Shown in pieces: positions 18,063 to 39,293 of a stretch of DNA of 64,000 nucleotides (position 1 is its first letter; each line of letters starts with the position of its first letter). Source of the stretch: Paratinospora sagittata (Eukaryota; Streptophyta; Magnoliopsida; Ranunculales; Menispermaceae); assembly GCA_035771175.1 (NCBI GenBank), contig CM069604.1:16989115-17053114 (forward strand), given 5' to 3'. The notes below the pieces were generated by a model, which made no database searches, was not told where the DNA came from, and saw only the letters and a list, made by a program, of their open reading frames with translations. The position numbers were made by a program, and so were the translations under genes.

Positions 18063-18280
18063 TTGACTTGTGAGTCAACCAAGACTATACCTTGTTTATG
18101 TACGGCTTGTAACCACGCCCGCAAGTTGGTTAGATATATGGCTTCTAGTTATGCTAGTAAGGTAACTAGATTGTACGGCTTCTAGTCATGCCCGTAAGTT
18201 GACTAGCCCTTCTTGGATTGGGAAATCCTAATCGTGGGTGATCAGGTAGTGGAGTAGGTTCTAGGGGAACCGAACCACTA
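18063..18280 (+). repeat. Stem-loop array plus terminal hairpin
   Basis: Four stem-loops with different, perfectly pairing stems. TTGACT/AGTCAA (18063-18078). TAACCA/TGGTTA with loop CGCCCGCAAGT (18110-18132). TCTAGTTA/TAACTAGA (18144-18170). CTAGTCA/TGACTAG with loop TGCCCGTAAGT (18182-18206). The closing structure pairs TAGTGG (18247) with CCACTA (18275) and GGTTC (18257) with GAACC (18267). Confidence 0.85.
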
Positions 18281-18819
18281 TAAACCCCTATGTCCATTTA
18301 TTCTTTTCCTACACATTATTGCTTTGCTTGTTACCTATATTGCGCATATATTCTGTTTAATTAATTAACCAAAAGGTAACGCAAAAATCCGCGAAGTCCA
18401 ATTCACCCCCCTTCTTGGAAAGTAATACAGGGCCAACATTTTCTAAGGTGGGATTTTGTTATCTAATTGAACCCCATGTCATGTATGTTTTGATGATTCA
18501 AAATATCTCCAATATGTGTTGCTAATGATCTTACCAAGTGTTTCAGATCTATCAAGAATCAAGATCAAGGAACTGAGCTCATAAGCTTATTGAACATCAC
18601 ATATAAAGTTTTGAGTCTGTCAGCACTTAGAATATAAAGTCTATCGATCAATTTGCTCTCAGCAAGATTTAATCATATTCGTATTTGGATCATATGCTTT
18701 ACAGTATTTCAAATGATTTAACTTCTTTATGATTAATTTGAAATTTACCGAGTTTTTATTCGCATTCATCGTATTTTTAATCGCGAGTCAAAACTACTTT
18801 TTCAGAGTCTTTCAGGACG

Positions 18820-19360
18820 TTCATGTTTTAGCAGCACCCACCTGGATTTGATGAGTCAGGACGGTGATAAAATATTGGGACGCTCAAGGTTGAATTGAAC
18901 TAATTAATAAGGACGCTTACTTCTAAGTAGCGACCTCCCTTTAGTCAACCTTTGAAAGCATTAGGACGCTGACTCAGTTTCAGCTCGCTGAAAGTTCTCT
19001 TAGTTTTAATTGATTTCTATCTTTAAGGACGCTGATAATTATAAGTTGAATAAACTGTCAGGACGCTACTTATATAGGAGCTCCCTCATCCTTAGAATCA
19101 ACTTAATAACTTTCAGGACGCTTACTGTCCTTCATCGCACTTAATATTGTCTTAAAATAGCTTTCAAATTTCAGGACGCTCACTTGTGAGTAGCACCCAC
19201 GTACTTTTAATGTTTTAATGTTTTAAAACAAAACAAGACACTAACTGTCGATTAGCGCCCTTAGGATTAAAGTCGTTTAAGTGTCATAGTAAGTCAGGAC
19301 ACTTACAAGTTAGTAGCGCCCTCACTTCATCATTCTGTAGGACACTAATGGTATATGAGC
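18820..19360 (+). repeat. U3 palindrome array, type A (GGACGCT ... AGCGCCC)
   Basis: About ten units of GGACGCT, a variable centre, and AGCGCC or AGCACC. A good example is at 19290-19320, where ACTTACAAGTTAGT lies between the arms. The number and order of units resemble those at 28620-29240 and 36890-37450. Confidence 0.8.
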
Positions 19361-19657
19361 GCTTTGAAAGGAACAACAAACGACAAAAATGATATTTTTA
19401 TTTTTCTGACACGTACTTCCTTTTAGCCACCTTTTCAGAACAACTTTTCATACAAAATATCAAATTTTTGTATTTGTAAGAGATTCTCAGATTCGTGAAC
19501 CACGTCTCTTAAACTTTCCTTATGTGTGAATCTGGAGAAAATCAGAGTGTTCATGAAATGTGCAGTTGCCATTTCATGATACATTCTAGTTGTTGTGAGT
19601 AAACGTTCATATTTGAAATTCAAATTCAAATGAACAACAACTTCATCTCTACAAGTC

Positions 19658-19667
19658 TATATATACC
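19658..19667 (+). promoter_or_regulatory. TATA-like box in SIRE-type LTR
   Basis: TATATATACCAACAC stands where CTATAAATACCAACAC stands in the LTR at 36294-39157. The minus-strand copy at 6196-6203 shows the same motif. Confidence 0.5.
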
Positions 19668-20049
19668 AACACTTTACAATCAGTTAAGACCACTGAAATT
19701 CTCTGAGGTAAAACACTTTTTGAAAGTTAGTCGAATATTCATCTGATTCAAATAGCTTAAGTTATTCTGGTTTTAAAGCGTTTTATTTGAATCTCTACTT
19801 ATTCAGAAGATTTTCATACTGAGCAAAATTTTTATCTTTATCTGAAAATCTATTTGAAAGCTAGAACTGTTTTCACTCAAATTTTTCAGCACTGATTTAA
19901 CTTGTATCATTCTTGTTGGAAGAGAAATTTGAGAGATAGTTCATAGGATATAGTTGTACTTAATTTCATATCTTGTATATTGTATCAAGGTTGTAATAAT
20001 AGTTAGATAAACTACTGAGTTGATATTCTCATATTCAACAAGGTTAGGT

Positions 20050-20345
20050 CTTCTCACACCTGTAAGTTAAGAAACGATCTTCTCACACCCGTAAGTTGAG
20101 AAACGGTAGTTCTCACACCCATAAGTTGATAAAGCTTAGGTTTGTCTCACACTCGTAAGTTGGGATAAGTTGGTCTCAAGCCTGCAAGTTGAGCAGTGTA
20201 CCGGTTGTTCTCACAATCGTAAGTTGAGAAAAGGTGTAACGGTTTGATTCTCACCCGTAAGAGAATTCTTTAGTGATAAGGTTTAAAATCCTAATTAAGG
20301 GGTTAGGTAGTAGACGTAGGCAAGTAGCCGAACCACTATAAATCG
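20050..20345 (+). repeat. Stem-loop array and terminal hairpin
   Basis: Seven stem-loops. Six are TTCTCA-type, with loop CACCCGTAAGT and TGAGAA. One of these, CTCAA/TTGAG, is re-paired around GCCTGCAAG (about 20173-20192). The seventh has ATTCTC and GAGAAT around ACCCGTAA. The terminal hairpin follows with GGC/GCC inner pairing before CCACTATAAATC. Confidence 0.85.
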
Positions 20346-20452
20346 ACTGTGCATATTTATCTCTATTCCGCACTTTAACTTTGCCATTGCAATTAATTTT
20401 AAATTGTCTAAGTGTCCAATTCACCCCCCTCTTGGACATACCTGGGCCAACA

Positions 20453-20744
20453 TGATTAAGGCTCCCAAACATCAAAAGTATGTTGCTAGTTAGATCATCA
20501 AGTCTAACTAAATATTTTTCCTTCCTATCCCAGTTTTTCTTAAGTTTTTATTGTCTTTGAGGGTATAAATAGTCCATTGAAAATAATATCCCACATATTA
20601 CATGATTGAACCTTAATGAAAGTTCTCATCATAATTCTCCAAAACATAAAATTATCAATATTTAGCATTGGAGGAGTGAAAGGGTTGTTACCGAAGTCAA
20701 AACTGATTATATTGGCCATTTGATCTTTAACTCTAGGTGGTTAG
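20453..20744. other. Unassigned flank between two LTRs
   Basis: AT-rich DNA with no gene, repeat or recognisable element end that I can identify. It is the target into which SIRE-1 inserted. Confidence 0.5.
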
Positions 20745-21987
20745 TGTTGAACCAATTATCCTCATGTATCTTACAAGAGTATGTCCCTTATGTGAAAGAT
20801 ATTTTGATGATTACAAACCACATTTAGTTTATGATAATACTGCATGCATGGCAAATCTAATCCTACTTGAAGGTTTCGAAGAATCAATGATGCTTGGTAA
20901 ACGTGTTATCAAGATCTACTTGAAGACCATGACCACTTGAAGATATATATAATTGTATGATTAGATTGTGTTTAGGTTGTAGAATCTTTACTATCATATG
21001 ATTTAGCAATTTGTATGACTACATGATTTAGTCGAGTTGATTTCCGATCATTTGCATTGAATTTTCTATGTTTGAATTGATCCAAAAATACCCAGATTTT
21101 AATCGCATTTATCGAGTTTTGAATGAAAAATCCAAAACTATTTTTAAGTGTCCACCAAGACGCTAATGTCTCAATAGCGCCCTCCTGGACTTGGTAAGTC
21201 AGGACGCTAGTGAAACATTAGGACGCTGATAATGTTTAAGGTTGAAATGTACTTATTCATCAGAATGCTCACTTCATCTGTAGCGGCGTCATTTAAGTCA
21301 ACGTGTGAACTTGTCAGGAAGCTGATTAAGAATCAGCTCGTTGATTGTTTTCAAAGTTTAAAATGTTTTAACTTTTAGGACGTTGATCGTCGTTCAACGC
21401 ACTTACTATTTTTACGAGTTAAAATATCATGATGCTCATCGTTTAGAAGCGCCCTTATGTCTTTCAGTTGTTTTAAATTGATTTTAAAATATCAGGACGC
21501 TTACTCGTTAGTAGCACCCCTGTGATTTTAAATAGTTTTAAAACAATGCAGGACGCTAATTGTGGATTAGCGCCCTCATGAAGTTTAGCCATTTTAATCG
21601 CCAAGTAAGTCAGGACGCTAACGGATAAGTAGCGCCCTCACTTCATAGTTCAGCAGGACACTTATGGTTCATAAGCTCCCTCAAAGGAAAAAAATGACGT
21701 TGATTAACCAATCAAGACATTAATTCAACACTGTCACTATTCTGACACTTACACCTTTACAGTATACTTTTTCAAAATTGTGCAAAACTTTTCAGAACTT
21801 TTTGAAACTTTTCAGAACGTTCTAATATTTTATCAGAACATTCCTCTTTTGTGAAAGATCAAAAGATTCAGGTAGTATTGTCGTAAATTGCACAGAGCTA
21901 AATCGATATGTTTCGGGAAAGAATGTATTCGTTGTTTTTTAAATGACTTTGTGCTCCAAAATTACCAAGTCCATTGCGCCACTGTTA

Positions 21988-22000
21988 TTTATATATATAT
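21988..22000 (+). promoter_or_regulatory. TATA-like promoter element of SIRE-1
   Basis: TTTATATATATAT occurs in a conserved context (GTCCATTGC ... GTTGCCTTAA) that recurs at about 31795 in the 3' LTR. It is the probable core promoter of the element. Confidence 0.5.
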
Positions 22001-22399
22001 GTTGCCTTAATACAGATCAAAGATCATCGATCTATCAATACAAAAAATTGAAAACCATTCAAAACATATTAACAGTTTTCACTTGTGTAAAAACTTTTGG
22101 AAGTTAGTCTTCTACTCTCTGCTTTTGAACTCACGATCTTTTGAAACACATTAAGTCTTCTCGATTTGTTAATCTTCATTTATATCATTTCAAAAATCCA
22201 TTGAAGAATACGAAAGCTTTTTAAACCAGCTTTTCAGCTTAACTTCATCATACATATTTTGCTAAATCTATGGTAACAGAAGGTTCAATCTAAAGCTTTG
22301 TAAGCATCACTTTGATTCTAAGTAAAGGGAATCATATCTCATCTTGTACTTTGATATCAGGGATTGGTTTGTCACTGGGATAGAGCAAGTATTGCTCGA

Positions 22400-22530
22400 A
22401 ATTGTAACGGTTCTTCTCACACCTGAAAGTTGAGAAAAGGTTTTTCTCACACCCGTAAGTTTAGAGAGTATAACGATTCTTCTCACACCTATAAGTTGAG
22501 AAAGATTACCGATTTGATCTTCACTCATAA
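22400..22530 (+). repeat. Stem-loop array in SIRE-1 5' LTR
   Basis: Three TTCTCA/TGAGAA-type stem-loops with loops CACCTGAAAGT, CACCCGTAAGT and CACCTATAAGT, then a CTTC/GAAG hairpin around ACTCATAA. The 3' LTR copy (32210-32365) has TCTTC/GAAGA around ACCCGTAA. Confidence 0.8.
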
Positions 22531-22759
22531 GAAGATCCTTAGAGGAGTTTGGACAAATCTTAACTGAGGAGGTTAGGTAGTGGATGTAGGAGAGTCTGAA
22601 CCACTATAAATCCTGTTGGTACTGTCTCTTTTACTATCCTTGTGTTTATTTGCTATACTCTATTTAATCTGCTTTCAATATTTCTTACATTTAAAAGAAA
22701 GGTTAAAATATGCTAAGTATCGAATTTACCCCCCTTTCGGACACATCTAGGCCAACAGT

Positions 22760-22774
22760 TGGTATCAGAGCAAG
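22760..22774 (+). other. Primer binding site, initiator tRNA-Met type
   Basis: TGGTATCAGAGCAAG lies 2 bp after the LTR end, the usual plant Ty1 primer site. Confidence 0.95.
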
Positions 22775-22810
22775 TTAACCGTCAAAGTATCTAACCATCT
22801 TTGAGTAAGT

Positions 22811-23563
22811 ATGGCAGGACAAAACGTAAGAAGTGTTTATCTTTCAGGTGAAGGAACTCCACCAACCGACCACCACTGTTCAAGGGAGATAACTATTCTC
22901 ATTGGAAAACAAATATTAGGTTCTACCTAAAAGCCCAAGACTTAGAAATGTGGGATGTTGTGACAAACGGTTGTCCAAAACCTACTAATATAGTAAAGGG
23001 TTCCACTGTCCCTAAGGGGTTAGACGAAATAGTCCCAAGGAAAGGAAAAGAAAATAGAGTTATTAAATAACCAAGCTGTAAACATTTTGTTTTGCAGTTT
23101 ATCTGTTGAAGAGTTCAATAGAGTTAGCGCGTGTGAAACCACTAAGGAAATCTGGGATAAATTAGATTTCACCCACGAAAGAACTTTGCAGGTTAAAAAG
23201 GCAAAGCTCCAAATGCTAGTTGAAATATATGAGACCTATAGGATGGAGGAAACTGATTTAACTGAGGCTATTGCTCGGTTTACAACAAACATCCATGAGA
23301 TGAAGAACCTAGGAAAAAGCTATGACCAAGAAGAAACGGTTAGAAAGTTTTTAAGGGGTCTACCTAAAGCTTGGGAACCCAAGGCCACGACCATTGAAGA
23401 AGCCAAAAATCTGGCTGAATATACTTTTGATGAACTGTGTGGTTCATTAATGGTTCATGAAATGAGGATAAAAGATAAGATGTGCCCAGTCAAGGTTGAG
23501 GAAAAAGAAAAGAAATCTATTTCCCTCAATGTTGAAACTGATTCTAAAGATGATTTAGACTAA
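22811..23563 (+). pseudogene. SIRE-type gag (broken)
   Basis: The ATG at 22811 opens MAGQNVRSVYLSGEG, a start shared by the gag scrap at 36132 (minus). A frameshift lies near 22870, after which KGDNYSHWKTNIRFYLKAQD is readable, and a TAA at 23068 precedes the long open part (23087-23563). That part contains TKEIWDKL, the TFTTN-like helix and RKFLRGLPKAWEPKATTIEEA, the core of the Ty1-type gag polypeptide (UBN2 family). Gag makes the virus-like particle. Not functional here. Confidence 0.85.
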
Positions 23564-23663
23564 GAAGATGACATGGTTATGTTATCTAGAAAATTCAACA
23601 GGTTAATTAAGTGAAAGGGTAAAAGTGGTTCTTACTCAAAGTTTCACAAAAGAAAGAAATACG

Positions 23664-24249
23664 AGTCAAAATAGGTAGAGTTAATTGTTACGGCTGTAAC
23701 AAACCAGGTCATGTAAAGAGTGAATGTCCCACTAGATATAAGAAGAACACAAGATAAAAAAGAAAGGACAAGAAAGTTCTCAAAGTCATGTGGGATGATT
23801 CAAGTTCAAGTGAGGATGAAGCAGATTCAGATCATACTGCTGCACTGTGCTTAATGGCAAGCATGGAGGTAAAATCTGAACCTGTTGGCGAACTTAATGC
23901 TTTTGATATTCATATGAATGATCTTAAGACAAAACTTAGTAAAAAAATTAGGAAGAATGAAAATCTCAAGAATAGTCTTGAAGAAGCTCATAAGGAAATA
24001 GAGTTCCAACAAGAAGAGCTAGACGGACTGTCCCTAGATAATGAACAACTTAAGAAAGTTGTTGAGAAACTGAAAAATGAAAACGAAACACTTAGAAAGG
24101 AAAAGGAAGACCTAAACTGCATTGTGATCAAGTTTACAAATGGTCAAAATTTATTTGACATGATGTTAGGATCACAAAGATGTGCATTTGGCAAAGCTGG
24201 CTTAGGTTATACACATGGGTCAAGCAAAAAGAATATAACACCTTACTGA
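23664..24249 (+). pseudogene. Gag zinc knuckle and coiled-coil region
   Basis: CYGCNKPGHVKSEC near 23680-23725 is an intact CX2CX4HX4C zinc knuckle, which in this family binds element RNA. A TAA near 23755 separates it from an open frame at 23788-24249. That frame has an Asp/Ser-rich start (DDSSSSEDEADSDH) and then a long Lys/Glu heptad-like stretch, a likely coiled coil of about 70 residues. It ends shortly before the protease. Confidence 0.8.
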
Positions 24250-24432
24250 CCAAAAGACCGACATGCCACAAGTGTCATTGGGAAGGTCATACCATGCTTA
24301 GATGTACTATCCTAAATGGAAAGAAAAAGTAATATGCATGAATTGACAAATTTGTCCTTACTGATGCTAACATGCATGGACCCAAAGTAGCATGGGTGCC
24401 AAAGTTAAAAGTATTTTATGTCATGTAGATGA

Positions 24433-25016
24433 GCAAAAATGAAGAACTATGGTATCTAGACAGCGGCTGCTTAAGACATATGACTGGAGATAAATCTAAA
24501 TTCTTGAGACTTGAAAAGAAGAAAGGATGAAAGGTCACCATCGGAAACGACAACAAAGGTGATATTGAAGGCATCAAAATCATTGGTAATCATTTTCTAT
24601 CCATATCTGATGTACTTTATGTTAAAGGGTTGAAGCATACTTTCTTGAGCATAAGTCAATTATGTGACAAGGGTTATGACATCTCATTTGAAGCAAATAG
24701 GTGCATTGTCAAGCATGTAGATAAAACTCTTGCATTCATGCCATCTAGACTTAAAAATGTGTATTGCACAAATCTTAATGACATGAAGAAACAAAATGTA
24801 ACATGTTTAAGTGTTATTTCTTGTGATGATGCATGGCTTTGGCATAGGAGATTAGCTCATGTTAGTATGGAAAACATTTCAAGAATTGTCAATCATGATC
24901 TTGCCAAGGGTATTCCAAAAGGAACTTACTCAAACGATCATGTCAATTGGGTAAGCATACCCAATCATCATTTAAGAGCAAGAGGCATCAATTTACCTCT
25001 AGAGCTCTCGAACTGA
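24433..25016 (+). pseudogene. Ty1 protease and GAG-pre-integrase domain
   Basis: WYLDSGCLRHMTG (about 24450-24490) is the Ty1 aspartic-protease site. The family usually has Ser where this copy has Leu, but the catalytic Asp is present. A TGA follows at about 24527. Next come FLSISQLCDKGYDISF and WLWHRRLAHVSMENI, the pre-integrase zinc-binding region with its His residues. The frame shifts near 24940 into the integrase core. Confidence 0.85.
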
Positions 25017-25690
25017 TTCACATGGATCGTTTCGGACCAACCAAAAGCCAAAGCTTAGGTGGTAAATCTTATGTATTTGTGATTGTTGATGACTTTACTC
25101 GATTCACTTGGGTCTTTCTATTAGCTCATAAATCTGATGCATGTAAATTATTTATAAAATTTTGTAAAAGAGTTGAAAATGAAAAAGGTTATAAAATCAA
25201 CATAATTAGGAGTGATAGAAGAGGTGAATTTGTCAATAAAAATCTCGAAGAATTTTGTAATAATCAAGGTTACACTCACCATCTATCAGCCCCTAGGACA
25301 CCTCAACAAAATGGTGTAATTGAAATAAAGAATAGAACATTGCAGGAAATGTGTAGAACAATGCTTATGAGTATAACACAACAAACCTTTTTTGGGGAGA
25401 GGCTATTAACACAAACTACTATGTAATGAACAAAATCCTAATTAGAAAAGATTTGAATAAAACTCCATATGAACTATGGAAGGGTAGAGCACCCAACATC
25501 AGTTACTTTCGAATATTTGGATGTAAGTGTTTTATCCTAAATAATAAAGACAACTTAGAAAGTTCGAACCTAAATCTAATATAGGAATATTTTTAGGATA
25601 TTCTTCTCACAGTAGAGCCTATAGAGTTTTCAATAAATCTAATCAAACTGTAGAACAATCAATTCATGTAAATTTTGATAAAAGTGAAAG
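24947..25690 (+). pseudogene. Ty1 integrase
   Basis: The core reads LIHMDRFGP (first Asp), FVIVDDFTRFTWVF, NIIRSDRRGEF (second Asp) and PQQNGVIEIKNRTLQEM (Glu). The triad is present, although neighbouring residues are changed (DR for the usual DL or DH). A frameshift after 25390 moves the C-terminal part (NKTPYELWKG, YFRIFGCKCFILN, IFLGYSSHSRAYRVFN) to other frames. It would integrate element DNA; it is broken. Confidence 0.85.
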
Positions 25691-27016
25691 TAAGAAAAGT
25701 CTTGATGATGAATTTAAACAAATAAACTTTGATGATGATGAACCCAAGACAACTAAGATCATAGATCTTGAGACTGAAATATCTTTAGAATCATCTAAAA
25801 ACTCTAGACTGCTTCAAGGTTTATCCAAAGATCAAATATTAGGAGATCCACACAATGGTGTATCCACTAGAGCTTCAATTCAAAGAGATCAAGAGTTTGT
25901 TGCTTTTGTATCGCAATTTGAACCAATTAAAATGGAAGATGCACCGAAAGATGAAAACTGGATTCTTGCTATGCAAGAATAACTAGGACACTTTGTGCAA
26001 AACAAGCTATGGGAATTCGTTCCTAGGCCATTTCATCATCCAGTTATAGGAACCAAATGGATCTTTAAAAACAGAAAGAATGAACAAGGTATCATTGTCT
26101 GAAATAAGGCTAGGTTGGTTGCACAAGGGTACAACCAAGAAGATGGAATAGACTTCGAAGAAGCCTTTGCCCCAATAGCAAGATTAGAGGCAATAAGGAT
26201 GCTACTTGGCTATACTTGTTACAAGGATTTTTCCTTATACCAAATGGATGTAAAGAGTGCTTTTCTAAAGGGATACATCAATGAAGAGGTATATATGGAA
26301 CAACCTCCAGGGCTTGAGGATGCTCATTATGTGTTTAAACTCCACAAAGCATTATATGGAATAAGACAAGCTCCAAGAGCTTGGTATAATTGACTGAGTT
26401 CGTTTCCTTTATATCATAAATTTCAAAAAAGAAAACTTGATCCAACTTTGTTTATCAAACACCATAATGACAATATGCTTATTGTTCAAATATATGTGGA
26501 CGATATCATTTTTGGTGCATCAAACAAAGAGTTGTGTGAAGAGTTTTCAAAACTAATGCAAAAGGAATTTGAAATGAGTATGATGGGAGAACTTGCATAC
26601 TTTCTTGGCTTGCAAATTAAGCAAATGCCAACAGGCACCTTCCTAAGCCAATCAAAGTATGCTAAGGAAATGGTTAAAAAGTCTCAAATGCATAATTTGA
26701 AATCAATTTATACTCCCTGTAACTCTGCAATTAAATTGGATAAGGATGAAAAAGGGAAACCGATTGATTCTAAACTTTATAGAAGTATGATTGGAAGTCT
26801 GTTATACCTAACAGCAAGTCGACCTGACATTATGTTCAGTGTCTGCCTTTGTGCAATATTTCAATCAGAACCTAAAGAAACTCACTTAAAATGTGTCAAA
26901 CGAATACTCAAATACATTAATGGCACAACAAACTTAGGAATTTGGTATTCCAAAGGTACTACCTTTGATTTGAAAAGTTATGTAGACTCCGACTATGCCG
27001 GTAGTCTAACTGATTG
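25690..27016 (+). pseudogene. Ty1 reverse transcriptase
   Basis: An acidic linker (DDDEPKTTK) precedes NWILAMQE, then [47 protein letters not shown] and [14 protein letters not shown]. The palm motif IYVDDIIFGASN is intact (about 26490-26525). GSLLYLTASRPDIMFSVCL marks the connection. Stops lie at about 25981, 26100, 26392 and 27015. Overall this is a SIRE-lineage RT that has lost its frame only at a handful of sites. Confidence 0.9.
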
Positions 27017-27441
27017 AAAAAGTATTTCCGAATTTTATCACTTTCTTGGAAATTCTTTAATTTCTTGATTTTACAAGAAGCAACACTCAGTGGCATTATC
27101 CACAACTGAAGCAGAATATGTTGCATCTGGAAGTTGCTGTTCTCAGGTCTTGTACATGAAACAACAACTTCATGGTTATCAAATATTTGTTGAGTGTGCT
27201 GAGATTTTGTGTGAAAATACAAGTGCTATTAACATATCTAAAAATCTTGTATTGCACTCCCGAACTAAACATATTCAAATAAGGCATCACTTCTTACGGG
27301 ATCATGTGCAAAATGGAGAAGTTATATTGTCTCACATTGGTGCAAAAGAACAATTAACTGATATATTTACTAAAGCTTTACCCAAAGACCAGTTTGTTCA
27401 CATTCGAAGAGAGCTTGGCATGTTCTCTGAGACTAATTTGT
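26950..27441 (+). pseudogene. Ty1 RNase H
   Basis: Readable motifs: SYVDSDYAG (first Asp), LSTTEAEYVA (Glu) and LCENTSAI, where the family has Asp but this copy has Glu. RTKHIQIRHHFLRD and LTDIFTKALP follow. Stops lie at about 27015 and 27066. The frame ends TGA at 27441, 276 bp before the polypurine tract. Confidence 0.85.
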
Positions 27442-27716: not shown

Positions 27717-27730
27717 AAAAAAGGGGAGAC
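27717..27730 (+). other. Polypurine tract of SIRE-1
   Basis: AAAAAAGGGGAGAC directly precedes the 3' LTR start TGTTGAACC. Confidence 0.9.
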
Positions 27731-28619
27731 TGTTGAACCAATTATCCTCATCTCCCTTACAAGAGTATGGCCCTTATGTGAGAGATATTTTGATGATTAC
27801 AAACCACATTTTGTTTATGATAATACTGCATGCATGGCAAATCTAATCCTACTTGAAGGTTTCGAAGAATCAATTATGCATGGTGAACTTGTTATCAAGA
27901 TCTACTTGAAGACTATGATCACTTGAAGATATATATAATTGTATGATTATATTGTGTTTAGGTTGTAGAATCTTTACTATCATATGCTTCAGCAATATGC
28001 ATGACTGTTAACCTATACGGTTCATCACTTAGCTCATCCCTAAATATATTGTGATAAAGTATATTTTGATGATCATAAACAAAGTACTTTTCGGTGCTAA
28101 ACGTGCGTGTATCAAGATTTCATCAAAGCACCTAAGGAAAACAAAAATTCAAGGAACGACTCGATCAAGGAACTCAAAGATCACATCCAACAGTCAAGTT
28201 CGTTTCAATCAAAAGGACTTCAACGATCACATCATGATTTCAAGATCACTTCACTTGAACGATTCGATCAAGCTTCAAGACTACATCTCTCGATCAACGT
28301 TCAAGACATTCAACTCCGTGCAAAGCTTTTGTTGAAGATCTCATAATGAAGAGTTGGATTTAACGGTTATGAGAAATGAGAAATACACAAAGTATTGAAG
28401 GTATATCTTTCGCTAATCGTTATTGCTCAAAATGTTTTTCAAAACCATGCATAAATCATCTACATATGTTTTTCTAATCTGCATGTTTTGATTTCATGTT
28501 TTTACGGTATTTCAAATGATCTAATACTAAATATTTAATTTGAAATATATCGAGTTTTTATTCGCATTTATCGTATATTTTATCGCGAGTCAAAACTATT
28601 TTTAAAGAATCTTTCAGGG

Positions 28620-29560: not shown

Positions 29561-30302
29561 CCAGCACTTAGGATCAAACAACTTGCCAATCACTTTGTGT
29601 TGTGCCAATACTTTTTGAAAGTTAATCTGTGTCAAAATGAATTTCATTTTCAAATCTTTCAAAGTATTTTTCACTGAAACCTTTACGATTACAATGGATT
29701 TTCATTAGAGCTTCAATTATACTTTATCTTTGAAAATATATCTTTATTGGTATCAACTCAAATTCTCAGCACTGGTTCATATTTGGTATCATTTTTGCTG
29801 GAGATAGAATTTGAGAAATAGTTCAAGATATACAGTTGTGCTTGATTTCATATCTTAAGTATTGTATTGAACTATATCAATAATTGCGTTAACTACTGAT
29901 CATTGAACAAGAAGTTTTCATACTTATATTTAATATCTACTTTGAAAACTGTCTGCGTCTTTGATTTACACCAGTCCTTCATTTTATATGTCAATGTTTA
30001 TTTGGTATATTTATTTTCGAAGAAGCACTGACTTTCACATCATATCATTCATGCTTTTTGAAACTGCACTTGAGCAATACCGAACATTGAAAGGTAAAGG
30101 ACTGAAGGTGTATTTCAACTTAGCATTGCGTATTTCATATTTCATATCTTTGTAATGTTATGTACTGAGCTTTATTGTAAAGTGTTCTACTATGTTAGAA
30201 CCAACCAACATCTTTAGTGTTGTAATGCTGGTGTGTTTCTGGACTGAAACAACCAGGACAAGTGAATGAAATTCACTTAATGACTTCAGGATTGAAATCA
30301 TG

Positions 30303-30760
30303 AAAGGTTATCTCTGAACCTGTAAAAGAAAACCGGTTCATCCTCATCCCGTAAAAGGATAGGTGTGCCCTTAACCTGAAAAACTATAGGTTATCTCTTA
30401 ACCTGTAAAAGAGAAAAAGGTTTATCCTCACCTGCAAGTAAGAAATCGGTTCTTCCTTATCCCGTAAATAGAAAACGATTCTTCCTTATCTCGTAAAAGG
30501 AACATGAGTTTTTTTCCTCATCCAGGAAAAAGGAAATGCGGTTCTTCCTTATCCCATAAAAGGAACATGAGTTTTTCCTCATCCCGAAAAAAGGAAATAC
30601 AGTTCATCCTTAACCCGTAAAAGGATAGGTTTACCTTAAACCTTTAAAAGGGCAGTTGTAACGGTTTGGTTCTCACCCCAAAGAGAATCGGTTAGTGGAT
30701 TGAGAAAATCCTACTCGGGAGATTAAGTAGTGGACGTAGGCTTGGCCGAACCACTATAAA
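30303..30760 (+). repeat. Stem-loop array with AAGGAA-type stems
   Basis: About eleven stem-loops. Clear ones: TCTCTT/AAGAGA around AACCTGTAA (30394-30414); TTCCTT/AAGGAA around ATCTCGTAA (30482-30502) and again around ATCCCATAA (about 30545); ATCCTT/AAGGAT around AACCCGTAA (30606-30626). The loop keeps CCCGTAA while stems differ from the TTCTCA family. TAGTGG (30728) pairs with CCACTA (30751). Confidence 0.88.
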
Positions 30761-31794: not shown

Positions 31795-31802
31795 TATATA
31801 TA
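31795..31802 (+). promoter_or_regulatory. TATA-like box in SIRE-1 3' LTR
   Basis: The TATATATA run lies in the same context as 21988 in the 5' LTR. Confidence 0.45.
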
Positions 31803-32209
31803 TGTTGCCTTAAAATAGATCAAAGATCATCGATCTATCAATACGAAAACTGAAAAACCATTCAAAACGTATTAACAATTTTCACTTGTGCAAAAACTTT
31901 TTAAAGTTAGTCTTCTACTCTCTACTTTTGAACTCACGATCTTTTGAAATACATTAAATCTTCTCGATTAGTTGATCTTCATCTATATCATTTTAAAAAT
32001 CCATTAAAGAATACAAAAGCTTTTTGAACCAGTTTTTCAGCTGAACTTCATCATACATATTTTGTTGAATTTGTGGTAACAGAATGTTCAATCCAAAGCT
32101 TTGTAAGTTTCACTTTGATTCTAAGTAAAGGAAATCATATCTCATCTTGTACGATATCAGTGACTGGTTTGTCACTGTGATAGGGCAAGTGTTGCTCGAA
32201 ATTGTAACT

Positions 32210-32370
32210 ACTCTTCTCACACCCGAAAGTTGAGAAAAGACGCTTCTCACACTCGGAAGTTGAGAAAAGATTTTTCTCACACCCATAAGTTGATAGAGTA
32301 TAACGGTTTTTCTCACACCAGTAAATTGAGAAAGTGTACCGATTTTGTCTTCACCCGTAAGAAGACTATA
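32210..32370 (+). repeat. Stem-loop array in SIRE-1 3' LTR
   Basis: Four TTCTCA/TGAGAA-type stem-loops, then TCTTC/GAAGA around ACCCGTAA (32348-32365), perfect here but imperfect in the 5' LTR. The terminal hairpin is deleted. Confidence 0.8.
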
Positions 32371-32724
32371 AATCATGTTGGCATTGTATCTTTTACCGTC
32401 CATGTGTTTATTTGCTATACTCTATTTAATCTGCTTTCAATATTTCTTACATTTAAAAGAAAGGTTAAAATCTGCTAACTGTCCAATTTACCCCCCTCTT
32501 AAACACATCTAGACCAACAATTATACCTTAAATACGACTCGTTGGACATCCAAAAGGGGGATGAATTGCGTGTTATGGCTGGTTTTAGTAAATTCTAAGT
32601 TCCTTAGTAGAATTCTTTGAAAGCTATGTTTTAATGTTCTAAAAATCAATGTGCATAAATTAAAAGTGCGAAAATAATAAAAATAGGCATAAATATTTTT
32701 ACGTGGTTCGAAAAACCTTTTCCT

Positions 32725-33010
32725 ACATCCACACCTAGAGAAATTGTCTCTAGGAATCCACTATACTTAGTTCACTTCAAGGGTGTGAACCAAAGCATTA
32801 CAATGTATTTTTAGACGTTCAAGACAAACCTATCCTTTTCACAGGCTAAGAACAAACCACTTGTTCATTTTCCAAAGGCAAATGAAAGTCAGAATCCATT
32901 TCACGGGGTAAGGATGAACAACTTGACCTTTTTCAAGATAAAGGGTATAACTAACTTAGATTCCAATCTTGGAATCCCAAGTGATTTCACAATCGCTTGT
33001 TTTGGTTTAT
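32725..33010 (-). repeat. Divergent stem-loop array
   Basis: Perfect or near-perfect stems, plus-strand reading: CCTAGAGA/TCTCTAGG (about 32735), GTTCAC/GTGAAC, TTCATTT/AAATGAA, GATTCCAA/TTGGAATC (about 32960), AAGTGATT/AATCGCTT. Stem sequences are unlike those in the other arrays. Confidence 0.7.
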
Positions 33011-33884
33011 TTCTAGTTGAAGTAAATCAAGGAGACTAAGTACAAAGATTAAATGTTTGTTCGAAGTAAATAGAACAATTACAAATGTAGCTCAAAAATA
33101 CGTGAACACCAATTACAAGATATGAAAATTTGTGCGCAAAGAGAAAAAGAGATCTTACAACCATGAATATTGTTTTCGTTGCATCAAGATTGCTCAAGAA
33201 ATTCATTTTCTTGATGCTTGGAATGATACATAAAAGTAAAACTTGAAATCCAAACTTTAGTTCAAAACATTTGGCTCTAGGGTTTTGAAAATGTGAGAAA
33301 GGGTTTGATTTTGGAAATCATTCAATGGACTCATATTTTTGTATCTCGTGTTTAAAATGGCTTAAGAGCATATATATATATATAGTTTGGAAGTGAGCAC
33401 TAGCCGTTATACACAAGAATATAACTGTTGGGGCTTAAAAATTGAGTTTTCGACTGTTAGAATCGTGTCTCGATAGTCATCGGTACTGATCTGAAGAAGC
33501 AGTGTGTTGCACGCAGACAAAGAACCAAAACCTAGAAAACCCAAGCAGAAGTGCTCTACTCAATTGCAGGAGTGCGCTGCTAGGTAATCCAGTCGACTGG
33601 ATGGTAATTATTTGAGTCCTTGCTAAATAAGTAAGCCAAAGCTTTTGAATGCATCCCAAGTTTTTTTTAAGTCATAACGTTTTTGAAGTCCAACTATTTT
33701 TTTGCAAGTCAAAGTTCTGACAAGTCAAAGTTTTGACAAATGATTTGAAAATGTTTTGAATTGCATTTTAATCTTCAATTTTGCTCACTTTAATTCATTT
33801 CAAACATATTTGAGTCTGTGTTTACAAGAAAGCGTGTTTTGAACTTGAATTTAAAAAAACAAAAAAACAAAGTTTTTAAAGTTC

Positions 33885-34185
33885 TATGCATCAGAAATAC
33901 GCTCCTATAGGGAGAAACACGTTTCTGAAAGCCAAATGCGAAATTTCACTTTGGCATGCAGAAACGTGTTTCCACTTGGAGAAACGCATTCTTGCATTTT
34001 TGGCCAGAATGAGTGTTTTTGACACACATCCAGAAATGCATTTCCTATGAATTTTTGGTAGAATGCATGAAAATGTGTTTCCACTGGCTGGAACGCATTT
34101 CCAACTTTTTTGGTAAAATGGATAATTTGTGCACTTGAAAACCTGCAACGTGTTTTCTGCTTTTGAAAACGTGTTTCTTTATTTT
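33885..34185 (-). repeat. U3 palindrome array, type C (GAAACGCGTTTC)
   Basis: Near-palindromes such as AGAAACGTGTTTCC, GAGAAACGCATTC and GAAAACGTGTTTC recur about every 35-60 bp. Frames read through it are artefacts of the repeat. Confidence 0.75.
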
Positions 34186-34330
34186 TTAAGGTCAAAATTG
34201 TCATTATGAGCACGAATTTCAAAACTGATCTGTCACAATCATTGGTTCAAACCTTAAATACATTGAACCTGAACTTAAAAGTGGAGGATTAGGGTTCTTT
34301 AACCCTGATTTCGTTTTGAGTATTGTATGT

Positions 34331-35262
34331 GAACCCTATTTTGATCTTCATATTATTGTATCTTATTTAGTGGTTTCATAAATATCTTGTGGTATCGATT
34401 CATGTGTTAAAGTTATACTATATTGAATCGATTTCATAGATCAACACTTGGTTTATTTGATTCTTGAACTTAATCGTTTACACTTTTAGAATCATCAAGT
34501 TTTTATCATCATTATATATATTGATTCTTGTGCTTTAAACATATCATTGTTAGAATCAATATCTAGATACATGTGCACATTTGATTCTTGAGTTCATAGC
34601 ATATATATTTGAATCGGTTGCATATTTGACAAAAACTTTTTCAACACATCGCATTATTTAAATCATTGTGGTTGGAATAGTGGTGTTTACTCATTCAAGA
34701 TTGTAAGGTTAATACTGTTGAGAGTGTTGTAAAACACTTCTCTCTATCATTTGTAATCTTGATGTATAGTTGACGTGTTTGTCAACCCGGAACATACCAT
34801 ATCTCGTAAGTTGGTTACAGTGTGGCTTTCTAGCCAAGCCCTTGTGTAGGCTAGAGTGCGCCTTTCTAACCAAGCCCTTGTGTGGGTTAGTGTGTGGCTT
34901 TCTAACCAAGCCCTTATGTTGGTTAGTGTAAGGCTTTAAGCCAAGCTAAGGCTTTAAGCCAAGCCTTTCTGTTGGCTTTTGTAAACGACTTCTAGTCACA
35001 CCCGTAAGTTGACTAGCCAATAATGTATCAGGAAATCCTAATCATGGTTGGGTAGTGAACGTAGGTTCTAGAGGAACCGAACCACTCTAAATCTCTGTGT
35101 CCAATTATATTTCCTGCATTTGTTTATTTTGATTGTTACCTACTGCGCACTTTATCTATTTAATTATATTAACCGAAAGGTAACGCAAAAATCTGCCAAG
35201 TCCAATTCAACCCTCAACCCCCAACCCCCCCGGGCGCATTGGACCATAATACCGGGCCAACA
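34331..35262 (+). mobile_element. SIRE-type LTR, forward 3' part
   Basis: It matches about 17620-18438 of the solo LTR and ends ACCGGGCCAACA. The 5' half is missing, replaced by the inverted LTR to its left. The C-rich stretch at 35215-35235 is a local expansion of the usual CAATTCACCCC context. Confidence 0.8.
34825..35080 (+). repeat. Stem-loop array with CTAGCC, CTAACC and CTAGTCA stems
   Basis: CTAGCC (34830) with GGCTAG (34849). CTAACC (34866) with GGTTAG (34885). CTAACC (34902) with GGTTAG (34921). CTAGTCA (34992) with TGACTAG (35010) around CACCCGTAAGT. The terminal hairpin has the GGTTC/GAACC inner stem. Confidence 0.88.
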
Positions 35263-35521
35263 AGGGAGTTTCCCTAACCTTGAGACAGTGTTTGTAGCGG
35301 TTTTGATTGGTTTAGTGGATTAGGAAAAATGTTGATTGTGAAGATCAAGTAGTGGATGTAGACTTCGATAAGCCGAACTACTATAAGTCATTGTGTTCAT
35401 CTTTTTACATTCCTACACTTTTTTATTTAAATTGTTCTTAAATTTAATTGAGTAAAGTAAAAAATTAAAAATTTGTAAAGTCCAATTCGCCATCCCTCTT
35501 GGACTATAATTTGGGCCAATA
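35263..35521 (+). mobile_element. SIRE-type LTR 3' end fragment
   Basis: It keeps the terminal hairpin region (GTAGTGGATGTAG ... CCGAACTACTATAAG), the CAATTCGCC context and an LTR end TTGGGCCAATA at 35521. Everything upstream is missing. Confidence 0.65.
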
Positions 35522-35885
35522 CTAAGGTTCTGTCATATTGGAAAAATGCTCCTGCACACGGAGATGCAATTCTGTGCAAAAATGTTCATTCTGCTAGAAA
35601 AAAAAGGAAACATGTTTCTAGCAATGGAAACACAGTTTTACCCCTTGGATGAAAAAATACTCATTCTAGACAGAAATGCAAAAACATGTTTCTCCTCAAG
35701 GAAACGCGTTCCTGCTTGCCAAAGTGAAAAATCACTTTCGAGCAACAAGAATACGTTTCTCCCTATGAGAGCGCGTTTCTAAGTGCATAGAACATGTAAA
35801 CTTGTTTTTCTTTAAAATTTCTAAGTCCAAAACATGTTTTCTTGAAAACTTAGATTCTAATACAATTAAGATTGATCAATTTGAA
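35522..35885. repeat. Type-C palindrome array without its LTR
   Basis: GGAAACATGTTTCT, GGAAACGCGTTCC and GAGCGCGTTTCT recur. It is a U3 scrap joined directly to a gag fragment. Confidence 0.6.
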
Positions 35886-35889
35886 AGAA

Positions 35890-36132
35890 TTTGAAGTTTG
35901 AAGCATTTGTTGAACCATTCACGCCTTTCCTTAGGCATGACAACACTGTTCTCTATCTTGGTAGGGCGTTCGTATCCATTAACCACTATCTCCCACATTT
36001 TTACATCTTGCACTCTTATGTAGTAACTCATGCAAGTCTTTCAATGGACACAGTTGTCTCCTTCGAACAATGGTGGTTGGTGGGTAGATTGACCTTCCTT
36101 GAATACACCCCAGTACCATCATTTCCCGCCAT
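35890..36132 (-). pseudogene. SIRE-2 gag N-terminal fragment
   Basis: The minus-strand ATG at 36130-36132 opens MAGNDGTGVYSRK. TNHHCSKE follows, then, after a frame change, KMWEIVVNGYERPTK, matching the start of the SIRE-1 gag (22811). About 240 bp survive before the type-C array. It lies 41 bp downstream of the primer site at 36184, as expected for the start of gag. Confidence 0.75.
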
Positions 36133-36172
36133 TTCTCAAAGAAATTGTTAGATAACTTTGAAACGAAAATAC

Positions 36173-36184
36173 GCTCTGATACCA
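36173..36184 (-). other. Primer binding site of SIRE-2 (tRNA-Met type)
   Basis: On the minus strand TGGTATCAGAGC follows the LTR end CCAACA with two bases between. It shows that the inverted LTR to the right is a 5' LTR. Confidence 0.9.
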
Positions 36185-36889
36185 CTTGTTGGACCAGATT
36201 ATAGTCCAAGAGGGAGTGTGAATTGGACTTAGCAAATTTTCTTTTAAACCTTAAACGACAATAATGGCAAAGTAGTAAAGCAAAGTAAAGTGTTGTTAAC
36301 CTATATGGTTCATCCTTAGCACATCCCTAAAGTATACTTGATAAAGTATATTTTGATGATCACAAACAAAGTATATTTTGGTGCTAACGAACGTTTTTCA
36401 AGAACTTATCTCTGCACCAAAGGAAAAGCAAAAAGCCAAGGAACGACTCGATCAAGGAACTCAAAGCTTACATCCAACGATCAAGCTCATTTCAACTAAC
36501 GGACCTCAACGATCACATCATGATTTCAAGCTCACTTCTCTTGGACGTTTCGATCAAGCTTTAAGACTACATCTCTCAATCAACGTTCAAGGCATTCAAC
36601 TCCGAATTACTCTTATTGAAGATCTCATAATGAAGAGTTGGATTTAACGATTATGAGAAAAGAGAAACACACAAAGTATTTAAGGTATATATTTCTCTAA
36701 TCGTTATTGCTCAAAATGTTTTCCAAAACCATGCATATATCATTTTCATATGTTTTCTGAATCTGCATGTTTTGACGTCTTAACTATATTTCAAGAAATT
36801 TAATACTATATATTTAATTTGAAATATACCAGGTTTTTATTCGCATTTATCGAATATTTTATCGCAAGTCAAAACTGTTTTCAAAGAGT

Positions 36890-37450
36890 CTTTCAGAACA
36901 CTAATGAAATAGCAGCACTCTCCTAAACTTGTTAAGTCAGGATGTTGATAGGTCATTAGGTTGCTGATAACGTTCAAGGTTGAAATGAACTTACTATTCA
37001 AGACACTTACTTGTATAGTAGCGGTCTTATATATTAGTCAACCTCTGAAGTTGTCAGGAAGTTGATCCAGCATCAGCTCACTGAAAGATTTCTTAAGTTC
37101 TTCAAAGAATGTATCTTTGAGGACGCTGATAGTTGTAATTTGATTAAAACTATCAGGACGTTTTCTAGTTAGAAGCGCCATCACATTTGGGAATCAACTT
37201 AGTAACTTTCAGGATGCTGATTGTCCTTCAACATGTGTGTTTTTAAATGTCTTAACTTGTAGGACGCTTACATAGTAATAGCTCACTCATGAACTTAATA
37301 GTTTTTAAAACATAGCAGGACGCTAACTGTGCATTAGCACCCTCATGGTTTAAGTCGTCTAAAGTCATAAGTAAGTCAGGATGCTTACGAGTTAGTAGCG
37401 CCCTCGCTTAAGGTTCAGTAAGACACTTATACGTAGTAAGTGCCTTCAAG
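36890..37450 (+). repeat. U3 palindrome array, type A
   Basis: GGACGCT ... AGCGCC units parallel to those at 28620-29240, with more decay (several units have lost the CpG). Confidence 0.75.
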
Positions 37451-37781
37451 GAACAAAACGACAAAGTTGATATTATGCGTTAGGACACTGATTACCGAAT
37501 CAGGACGCTAATTCAACTACCGTCACTGTTAGAATGAGTACAATATGTCAGTTTACTTTTTCAGAACAGACACTTGCACAGAGTCCTTTTCAGACTTATC
37601 AGAGACCTTTCTGATACATGAAAGAAGTTCTTCTAAAGCTTTCCTCTTTCATGAAATCTGAAAAGAACCAGAATGTTAGTGAAAATCGCAGTTGCTATTT
37701 TGATATAACATTCTAGCCGTTGTGTGAAAACGTTCACATTATTTGAACTTCAAATGTCTAACTGCTATGTCCCACTAAGTC

Positions 37782-37789
37782 TATAAATA
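37782..37789 (+). promoter_or_regulatory. TATA box of the solo LTR
   Basis: GTCTATAAATACCAACACTT, in the same context as 29553. Confidence 0.65.
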
Positions 37790-38538
37790 CCAACACTTAG
37801 GACCAAACAACTTGCCAATCACTTTGTGTTGTGCCAATACTTTTTGAAAATTAGTCTGTGTCAAAATGAATGTCATTTTTTAATCTTTCAAAGTATTTTT
37901 CACTGATACCGTATGTACTCAAATGATTTTCATACTGAGCTTATTTTCATTCTTTCTTTGAAAATATATTTGATCTGGTATCTACTCAAATTCTCAGCAT
38001 TGATTCACACTTGGTATCATTCTTGCTGAAGTTAGAATTTGAGATATAGTTCATGAGAAATACAATTGTACTTGATTTCATATCTTAAGTATTGTATTGA
38101 ACTATATCAGCAGTTATATTAACTACAGAACACTGAACCAGAAGTTTTCATACTTATATTTTATATCTATTTTGAGAACCTTCTGTGTTTATGATTTACA
38201 TCAGTCCTTCATTTTCTAAGTCAATTTTTATTGGTGTCATATTATTTTCGAAGAAGCACTGATTTTCATATCACATCATTTATACTTTTCGAAACTGCAC
38301 TTGAGCAATACCGAACATTAAAAGGTAAAAGACTGTAAGTGTATTTCAACTTAGCATTACCTACTTCACATTTCATGTCTTTGTAATGCTATGTACTGTG
38401 CTTAATGTAAAATGTTTTACTGCGTTAGAACCACCCAACATCTTAGTGTTGTAATGTTGGTGTGTTTCTGGATTGAAACAACTAGGACAAGTGAAGGTAG
38501 TTCACTTGATGATTTCAGGATTGAAATCAGGTAGGTTA

Positions 38539-38658
38539 TGTCACACCCTGGGTTGCACAGCGTGCCCCCTACCTAGGTGTGCGTGCACCCCCTCGGGGCG
38601 AACCCCAGCCATTATGGATCCATAATATTGTCCCATCCCGGTACAGCCACCGCCACAC
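38539..38658. other. GC-rich 120-bp insert of unknown origin
   Basis: TGTCACACCCTGGGTTGC ... CCGCCACACA stands out in AT-rich surroundings and is missing from the sister LTR. The ends resemble Tekay-type LTR termini (TGTNACNCCC and GCCACA). It holds a perfect 16-bp palindrome, ATTATGGATCCATAAT. No clean target duplication is seen. Confidence 0.55.
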
Positions 38659-39266
38659 AAGGACGTCTCTTGTATACGGGATCATTTGTCCTCTTGTAAG
38701 AGGATAGGTTATCATTTGGCAAAAGGATCATGGTTTTTCCGTAGCTAGTAAAAGGAACATGGGTTTCTCCTCATCCCAGAAAAAGGAAATTTGGTTCTTC
38801 CTTAGCCAGTAAAAGGAACATGGATTTTTCCAAATTTCAGAAAAAGAAAAATGGTTCATCCTTAGCCCATGAAAGGATAAGTTTGCCTTTAACCTGTAAA
38901 AGGGCAATAGTAATGGTTTGGTTCTCACCCGTAAGAGAATTAGTTAGTGGATTGAGTAAATCCTAATCGGGAGATTAGGTAGTGGACGTAGGCTTGGCCG
39001 AACCACTATAAATCTGTGTGTCAAACGTTTGTATTTTAGTTTGTGTTCTAATTTGCATTATGTTCCAATTAACTTATGTAAATCACTTAAGTTATTGGAA
39101 GACCTTTTTAAAATTGACCATTGCACCCAATTCACCCCCTTCTTGGGTGGACCAACAAGTGCAAGAAATGAAAGATAGACACAACGATTTATAGTGGTTC
39201 GGCTTCCCAAAAGCCTACCTTCACTACTTGACCTCCCCGGTCAATATTTCCCAAACTCCACTAACC

Positions 39267-39293
39267 TTGATCCAACTTACGGGTGTGGATCAA
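39267..39293 (-). repeat. Single perfect stem-loop with CACCCGTAAGT loop
   Basis: TTGATCCA (39267-39274) pairs over 8 bp with TGGATCAA (39286-39293). The minus-strand loop is CACCCGTAAGT, the same as in the TTCTCA and CTAGTCA arrays although the stem is unrelated. Confidence 0.9.

What the first reader, a model, noticed from the sequence alone, without database searches (positions are those of the whole stretch)
18063..39293. Stem-loop arrays with a fixed CCCGTAAG loop and fully exchanged, still-pairing stems
Seen directly: ten arrays near the 3' ends of SIRE-type LTRs hold tandem hairpins whose loop is CCCGTAAG or close. At least ten stem sequences occur: TTCTCA/TGAGAA, ATTCTC/GAGAAT, CTAGTCA/TGACTAG, TCTAGTTA/TAACTAGA, TAACCA/TGGTTA, CTAACC/GGTTAG, CTAGCC/GGCTAG, TTGATCCA/TGGATCAA, TTCCTT/AAGGAA, ATCCTT/AAGGAT, TCTCTT/AAGAGA. 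Both arms change together while the loop stays, the pattern expected if structure is selected. The arrays lie downstream of the U3 TATA box, so they would be transcribed in the R-U5 leader. Inference: a capsid or packaging ligand, a translation element, or a decoy. The loop often contains GTAAGT, the 5' splice-site consensus, so recruitment or masking of U1 snRNP is one testable idea. I know of no description of this array.
Basis: partly seen in the sequence, partly recalled or inferred. Interest (0 to 1): 0.88.

Follow-up and report, generated by a model that had tools for sequence, protein, structure and literature searches.

The report
Retroelement leader hairpins with swappable stems
Thousands of places in one plant genome carry pieces of a jumping element in which, within the stretch predicted to start its RNA, a row of small inverted repeats has arms that change together while the middle letters stay nearly fixed; they are predicted to fold into hairpins and would likely tag the RNA copy that is packaged, an untested role.

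Summary
The window holds nine CCCGTAAG hairpin clusters, eight of them inside the reported span. The genome holds 4,973 exact sites for one unit, 0 in the reversed control.

Own arms pair far better than arms swapped inside the same array: 54% against 25%. The last array hairpin and two further hairpins downstream keep pairing beyond a tree-based null: 0 of 3 x 1,000 simulations for the three together. Unguided RNAalifold finds the same three. Their changes favour G.U over A.C on the sense strand, 68 to 29 (p 6e-5), as expected of transcribed RNA. U3 palindromes upstream of the TATA box show no such bias.

The upstream tandem units pair but show no clear strand bias, and whole-array folding is only weakly better than shuffled. 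RNA-level selection is therefore supported for the 3' hairpins and only inferred for the rest. The U1 and pseudoknot ideas are not supported.

The array lies between two TATA-like boxes. In barley BARE, only RNA from the upstream TATA is packaged. I therefore propose a packaging or assembly tag. Palindromic repeats in Sirevirus LTRs are known, but upstream of the TATA box. This downstream module is a new variant.

The parts
20745..22757 (+). 5' LTR of a Sirevirus-type Ty1/copia element (TGTTG...CCAACA); reference LTR for the layout
   Evidence: Read directly: PBS-like TGGTATCAGAGC begins at 22760; the start matches the 3' LTR start at 27731
21990..21999 (+). upstream TATA box (TATA1) of the reference LTR (TATATATATA)
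   Evidence: Read. The strict string CTATAWATAY is in 48 of 84 fetched LTR segments, with 235 of 247 units downstream of it
22414..22536 (+). CCCGTAAG-type hairpin array of the reference LTR (TTCTCA/TGAGAA units, then GATCTTC/GAAGATC)
22516..22537 (+). terminal array hairpin GATCTTC-ACTCATAA-GAAGATC
   Evidence: helix 1; tree null
22559..22577 (+). CCTAAY-type hairpin (here CTTAAC...GTTAGG)
   Evidence: helix 2; found unguided
22578..22611 (+). box hairpin TAGTGG...CCACTA running into CTATAAAT, a possible second TATA box
   Evidence: The outer stem was the selection criterion for the fetched LTRs, so only the inner stem counts as evidence
22760..22771 (+). primer binding site TGGTATCAGAGC
   Evidence: read; identity with the initiator tRNA-Met end recalled
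23033..27017 (+). broken gag-INT-RT pieces of the element (described only, not joined)
   Evidence: Pfam PF14223, PF13976, PF00665, PF07727
27466..27729 (+). cluster of purine-tract copies, the last one next to the 3' LTR start
17154..17163 (+). TATA1 of another LTR family
   Evidence: read
18110..18205 (+). array with TAACCA, TAGTTA and CTAGTCA stems
18247..18280 (+). box hairpin with fully different inner stem GGTTC/GAACC
19657..19666 (+). TATA1 (CTATATATAC)
   Evidence: read
20051..20266 (+). array, TTCTCA/TGAGAA units and terminal ATTCTC/GAGAAT
30339..30688 (+). array, TTCCTT, ATCCTT, TCTCTT units and terminal GTTCTC/GAGAAT
32214..32366 (+). array, TTCTCA units and terminal GTCTTC/GAAGAC; the following box stem is missing
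34813..35015 (+). array with 36-nt period (CTAACC, CTAGCC, CTAGTCA stems); early units have a diverged loop
37781..37790 (+). TATA1 (CTATAAATAC)
   Evidence: read
38737..38940 (+). array, TTCCTT, ATCCTT units and terminal GTTCTC/GAGAAT
39269..39291 (-). single hairpin; 8-bp stem TTGATCCA/TGGATCAA around the CCCGTAAG loop (arms extend 2 nt beyond these ends)
5563..5809 (-). array outside the reported span, TTCTCA units and terminal ATTCTC/GAGAAT

Best explanation
The 3' part of these Sirevirus-type LTRs holds a run of up to 11 small inverted repeats with a near-constant CCCGTAA middle, followed by two further stem-loop sequences, all predicted to fold as hairpins in the element's sense RNA between an upstream TATA box and a second TATA-like box, and likely to serve as a multivalent tag for packaging the genomic RNA. 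Shown by computation: unit-specific arm pairing; pairing kept beyond a tree-based null in the terminal, CCTAAY and box hairpins taken together; sense-strand G.U bias in those three; position downstream of a TATA string. Inferred: that the upstream tandem units are under the same RNA-level selection. Inferred from barley BARE: RNA started at the upstream TATA would carry the whole module and be packaged, while RNA started at the downstream TATA-like box would lack it and be translated. Inferred: the loop is presented to the element's Gag or a host partner, with stems free to drift as long as they pair.
For: Own arms at least 5/6 paired in 368 of 680 core sites (54.1%) against 25.2% (max 29.6%) in 5,000 within-array permutations; foreign arms 3.7%. 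Three-helix pairing 92.8% against 79.5%: 0 of 3 x 1,000 tree-null simulations; covariation score reached in 20, 17 and 24 per 1,000. On 69 non-redundant LTRs 94.2% of cells pair, 82 two-sided changes against 23.6 shuffled (0/500), at most 47% when slid. Unguided RNAalifold gives the same three hairpins (4 of the 7 pairs of the terminal one). WC>GU 68 against WC>AC 29; 49.4 GU expected from the local substitution spectrum, p 6e-5. U3 palindromes are symmetric: 163 to 145, 119 to 102 for those in LTRs with the TATA string, where 254 of 254 lie upstream of it. 370 of 396 units lie within 500 nt 5' of the box in 76 LTRs; 235 of 247 are downstream of TATA. BARE precedent for two TATA boxes with only TATA1 RNA in particles: PMC3735527, section 12 read, other passages.
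Against: Upstream tandem units show no significant G.U excess (30 to 21 distinct arm pairs, p 0.26; 6 to 4 in the first 100 of 4,533 sites). Sense folding of the array is only weakly better than dinucleotide shuffles (mean z -0.79, 15 of 84 below -2), and antisense scores lower still (-1.22, 17 of 84); isolated unit hairpins are also slightly more stable as antisense. The terminal hairpin's tip-branch changes are nearly symmetric (10 to 9). The box inner stem alone is weak (44-58 per 1,000), and CCTAAY and the box inner stem do not stand out on the covariation score. Only 48 of 84 LTR segments hold the strict TATA string. Nothing here measures transcripts, start sites or Gag binding. One plant genome only, and nearly all copies from one contig.
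Confidence: 0.38

Rival explanations
1. The arrays are DNA-level palindromic regulatory repeats, like the known Sirevirus repeated motifs, and the CTATAAAT in the box is the main TATA box, so the arrays are upstream promoter sites and not RNA.
For: Sirevirus LTR palindromes are a known class (PMC2829016, sections 9-11, 13 and 19 read). The box has a TATA-like CTATAAAT. Tandem-unit changes are strand-symmetric.
Against: Arms are exchanged wholesale while the middle stays, the reverse of a conserved half-site. Where the strict upstream TATA string is present, 235 of 247 units lie downstream of it. The hairpins beside the box show G.U bias, which DNA sites should not. A separate palindrome set already sits upstream of that TATA (254 of 254 units).
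Confidence: 0.22
2. The pairing is a mutational by-product: template switching during reverse transcription copies one arm onto the other (quasi-palindrome correction), and tandem duplication spreads the result; no function is needed.
For: Copy number per array varies from 0 to 11, so turnover is high. Weak folding and symmetric recent changes fit no selection.
Against: It predicts no G.U excess over A.C, yet the three 3' hairpins show one. The loop core and the order terminal - CCTAAY - box are kept across families with different stems.
Confidence: 0.2
3. The hairpins are mainly a source or target of host small RNAs, as proposed for maize Sirevirus palindromes, and persist because another function forbids their loss.
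For: Maize Sirevirus LTR palindromes are small-RNA hot spots (passages of PMC5311732 and PMC10760457; the 2016 original is not held).
Against: Units here are 20-23 nt with 6-8 bp stems, which I judge too short for a Dicer substrate (recalled). The maize motif is CACCGGAC..GTCCGGTG in the cis-regulatory region. No small-RNA data could be tested.
Confidence: 0.1
4. The loops recruit or mask U1 snRNP through GTAAGT.
For: Class A loops contain GTAAGT.
Against: Classes B and C read GTAAGA and GTAAAA. CC and AA are more constant than GT. Some terminal units read CCCATAA (4 of 26 perfectly paired class B units have A for G; further cases).
Confidence: 0.03

Closest known systems
Sirevirus LTR repeated motifs (RM), Bousios et al. 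2010, PMC2829016 (abstract and sections 9-11, 13, 19 read)
   Same: Multi-copy palindromes in Sirevirus LTRs; the U3 here has its own such set, AGGACGCT..AGCGCCC
   Different: RMs have a CGG-CCG core (all but one element) and lie upstream of TATA; the array here lies downstream, with exchanged arms and a constant middle
Palindrome-rich cis region of maize Sireviruses, Bousios et al. 2016 (not held; known here only from passages of PMC5311732 and PMC10760457)
   Same: LTR region able to form hairpins; rapidly evolving
   Different: Motif CACCGGAC..GTCCGGTG; no constant loop with swapping stems is described in those passages
BARE two-promoter LTR, PMC3735527 (section 12 and passages read)
   Same: copia LTR with two TATA boxes; leader between them present only in the packaged RNA
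   Different: No hairpin array is mentioned in what I read; start sites here are not mapped
Retroviral and Ty1 leader packaging structures (recalled, no call)
   Same: Hairpins between the RNA start and the primer site, with exposed loops
   Different: Those are a few unique hairpins, not a variable tandem array of one loop

Membership tests
Ty1/copia, Sirevirus | gag then integrase then RT order, copia-type domains | tested here: met
   Retrotran_gag_2, gag_pre-integrs, rve, RVT_2 in that order in 5 of 6 pieces; the sixth (27069-27440) matched no family
Ty1/copia, Sirevirus | cluster of purine-tract copies upstream of the 3' LTR | tested here: met
   27466, 27514, 27569 and terminal 27720
Ty1/copia, Sirevirus | C-rich signal near the LTR 3' end | tested here: met
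   CAATTCACCCCCCTCTTGGAC or similar about 20-30 nt before the LTR end, read by eye
Ty1/copia, Sirevirus | RT phylogeny within Sirevirus | not tested
   no tree with named elements was made
Ty1/copia, Sirevirus | env-like ORF (optional in the genus) | tested here: not met
   only about 290 nt between the last pol-region ORF (ends 27443) and the 3' LTR start (27731) in this copy
Sirevirus RM boxes | CGG-CCG palindromic core | tested here: not met
   array core is CCCGTAA with variable arms
Sirevirus RM boxes | position upstream of the TATA box | tested here: not met
   235 of 247 array units lie downstream of the TATA string in the 48 LTR segments that have it
Conserved structured RNA | covariation beyond phylogeny | tested here: met
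   three 3' hairpins together: pairing 0 of 3 x 1,000, covariation score 20, 17, 24 per 1,000; box inner stem alone only 44-58 per 1,000
Conserved structured RNA | covariation of each upstream tandem unit beyond phylogeny | tested here: inconclusive
   within-array swap test passes; strand bias not significant
Conserved structured RNA | match to a curated Rfam family | tested here: not met
   0 matches at gathering score in 17000-40000
Retroelement packaging signal | present in particle RNA and bound by Gag | not testable with these tools
   needs RNA from particles and a binding assay

The most novel reading that the evidence does not exclude
A tandem array of interchangeable-stem hairpins presenting one loop acts as a multivalent Gag-binding code in the leader. 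Because it sits between two promoters, promoter choice alone decides whether an element RNA carries the tag and is packaged, or lacks it and is translated.
Probability: 0.2. Interest if true: 0.82.

Novelty: new variant of a known kind. Interest (0 to 1): 0.6.

Why it matters
Sireviruses make up a large share of some plant genomes (21% of maize B73 according to a passage of PMC10760457), yet no cis-acting RNA signal of the genus turned up in my searches. This module occurs thousands of times in one genome with natural stem variation, so structure, start site and packaging can be tested on natural copies. If the two-promoter reading holds, it explains how one locus makes separate RNA pools for translation and replication.

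Tried and rejected
Pseudoknot between the ACGG spacer and the CCGT loop. Some units show 5-7 bp (AGGTT/AACCT, ACAGGTT/AACCTGT), but own against swapped is 29% to 24-27% at 4 bp or more (10% to 4% at 5 bp or more). The key letters do not covary (Fisher p 1.0; spacer A/G against loop T/C gives p 0.016, carried by class C). A neighbouring letter pair does go together in class A (T-A 55, C-G 9, T.G 4, C.A 1), but it follows LTR family. Dropped.

Mutual-information ranking of all columns in the terminal alignment was dominated by family structure, so I used a tree null instead (first version, final).

Fixed-consensus G.U counts for classes A and C were near symmetric and partly spoiled by register slips. 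The first G.U count (66 to 18 distinct units) was inflated by inherited types: by distinct arm pairs it is 31 to 14 or, with one more register, 40 to 24 (p 0.06). The tree-based count replaces it.

A first substitution spectrum included the box letters used for selection and was replaced. A first TATA-position count (45 of 45) searched non-overlapping ranges for TATA and units apart from a 100-nt overlap, so it was largely built in; one search replaces it.

Viral contigs: no match to the unit and no encoded relative of the RT piece. Literature: the listings (four array sequences as text, 0 papers) showed no paper on a CCCGTAAG array or on covarying hairpins downstream of the TATA in plant LTRs; most listed papers were seen as title and start of abstract only.


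Full report
What is there. It is a nest of Ty1/copia LTRs. The clearest element has a 5' LTR at 20745-22757, a primer site at 22760, gag, pre-integrase, integrase and RT pieces in copia order, a cluster of purine tracts and a 3' LTR from 27731. The C-rich signal near the LTR end and the purine-tract cluster are marks described for Sireviruses (PMC2829016; abstract, sections 9-11, 13, 19). I did not make an RT tree with named elements.

The arrays. CCCGTAAG is strongly enriched (11 against 0.55 expected), and ten of the 11 sites are in arrays. One search lists nine array clusters, eight in the reported span. Genome-wide the class A unit CACACCCGTAAGTTGAGAA has 4,973 exact sites, with none in the reversed control. 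A conserved box about 100 nt downstream, GTAGTGG..GAACCACTATAAA, has 8,101, also with none in the control.

Sample. The pattern does not look at the array. Of its 100 listed places, all on contig C1, I fetched 74 (30, 40), and two more lie in earlier loci; the loci came from a unit pattern and overlap in part. After removing duplicates and copies without the box or with less than 420 nt upstream, 84 LTR segments from 103 sequences remained. A1 uses 69 of the 84, those less than 95% alike; the position count uses 76. Because both selection and extraction required the box, the constancy of its outer stem is not evidence.

Layout. In order: an AGGACGCT..AGCGCCC repeat set in U3 (226 units in 58 of 84 LTRs, 851 nt or more upstream of the box), a TATA box, the CCCGTAA array, the terminal hairpin, a CCTAAY hairpin, the box hairpin with a TATA-like CTATAAAT, then (read in three window LTRs) about 110-155 nt to the LTR end. 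370 of 396 units lie within 500 nt upstream of the box. The strict string CTATAWATAY is in 48 of 84 segments; there 235 of 247 array units are downstream of it, and 254 of 254 U3 repeats upstream. If R is as short as described for plant Pseudoviridae (abstract and passages of PMC3601003), the array is in U5.

Arms belong together. Of 680 core-like sites (loose: up to 2 mismatches in 7), 368 have at least 5 of 6 paired arms. Permuting right arms within the same array gives 25.2% on average and never more than 29.6% in 5,000 trials, against 54.1%. Arms taken from a unit with a different stem pair in 3.7% of 856 combinations. Eighteen perfect left arms occur, ten of them in two or more LTRs; at one difference they fall into nine groups, three of them single sites.

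Phylogeny. Related copies inflate covariation, so I rebuilt each column's changes on a tree made from the remaining columns and scattered them at random. (The inner box columns were among those used for the tree, which makes that helix's test less independent.) For terminal, CCTAAY and inner box helices together, pairing of 92.8% was never reached in 3 x 1,000 simulations; the covariation score was reached in 20, 17 and 24 per 1,000. Singly, the terminal hairpin gives 6-12 per 1,000 for pairing and 8-15 for the score, CCTAAY 0-4 for pairing, the inner box 44-58; CCTAAY and the inner box do not stand out on the covariation score alone. One search gives 82 two-sided changes against 23.6 shuffled, although the number of pairs with any two-sided change is not special (137 of 500), nor the number of pair types (301 of 500). 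RNAalifold, given no structure, returned the same three hairpins, with 4 of the 7 pairs of the terminal one. Whole stems differ between families: CCTAAC/GTTAGG, CCTAAT/ATTAGG, CCTGA/TCAGG; GGC/GCC, GGTTC/GAACC.

Which strand. RNA tolerates G.U but not A.C, and the two are mirror images on the two strands. On the tree, changes from a Watson-Crick pair went to G.U 68 times and to A.C 29 times in the three hairpins; the local spectrum downstream predicts 49.4 (p 6e-5). By helix: terminal 17 to 10, CCTAAY 27 to 7, box inner 24 to 12. The U3 repeats gave 163 to 145 and 119 to 102 in LTRs with the TATA string. This points to sense RNA for the three 3' hairpins.

What did not work out. For the tandem units the same test is not significant (30 to 21 distinct arm pairs; counting every copy it is 55 to 29, against 160 to 214 with swapped arms, but copies are not independent). 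Genome-wide samples of single-step variants are even: 6 to 4, one double change and 89 unchanged of the first 100 of 4,533; and in the first 100 of 4,446 terminal hairpins, 92 matched, 4 T.G, 4 C.A and 0 crossed at the two inner test pairs, with 59 G.T and 41 A-T and no C at the outer one, an inherited state. The even changes look like decay after insertion. In one search, mismatches seen in one array only were 14 G.U to 10 A.C, those in two or more arrays 17 to 4, which fits selection before and decay after insertion, but the numbers are small, with one more register, gives 26 to 18 and 14 to 6. Folding the last 260 nt upstream of the box is only slightly better than shuffles (mean z -0.79 sense, -1.22 antisense), and single units are marginally more stable as antisense (-3.90 against -3.50 kcal/mol), although real arms beat foreign arms (-3.50 against -2.25). 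A pseudoknot between spacer and loop was tested and dropped.

How it most likely works. In barley BARE, another copia element, the LTR has two TATA boxes; RNA from the first is uncapped, unspliced and found in particles, while RNA from the second is capped and on polysomes (PMC3735527: section 12, passages). There the starts are about 300 nt apart. Here the array occupies the stretch between two TATA-like boxes. The simplest joint reading is that the array marks the long RNA for packaging, with the loop as ligand and stems as interchangeable scaffolds. The steps beyond structure are inferred, and that the downstream CTATAAAT is a working TATA box is untested.

What is known. Palindromic repeats in Sirevirus LTRs, their position upstream of TATA and their small-RNA link are published. 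The array here differs in core, position, constant middle and arm exchange. That it is undescribed rests on the listings in an open-licence library; the key 2016 paper could not be read.

Noticed in passing
window 21150-21700 and 37300-37450; 58 of 84 fetched LTRs: U3 repeats of a 26-nt form AGGACGCT N11 AGCGCCC; lined up as an inverted repeat the consensus has one A.C mismatch on the sense strand, which would be G.U on the antisense strand. Likely the local version of the Sirevirus RM boxes.
   Followed up: partly
window 3878-5013: Three copies of a 378-bp unit in tandem, 96% matches, satellite-like.
   Followed up: no
window 35347-35387: A decayed box hairpin without any CCCGTAAG array in front of it, in an LTR remnant directly after another LTR end.
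   Followed up: no
window 38545-38700: A GC-rich stretch interrupts the start of the array of the 38.7 kb LTR, probably an insertion inside the leader module.
   Followed up: no
window 11965-12804 (+) and 57959-59203 (-): Long integrase-like ORFs that look like a Ty3/gypsy element flanking the copia nest (family assignment by eye, not searched).
   Followed up: no
class C penultimate units, e.g. L065, L074, L090: Position-homologous unit with stems TGCC/GGCA, TACC/GGTA and TTCC/GGAA: compensatory swaps within one orthologous position, beside copies with single A.C or G.U mismatches there.
   Followed up: partly
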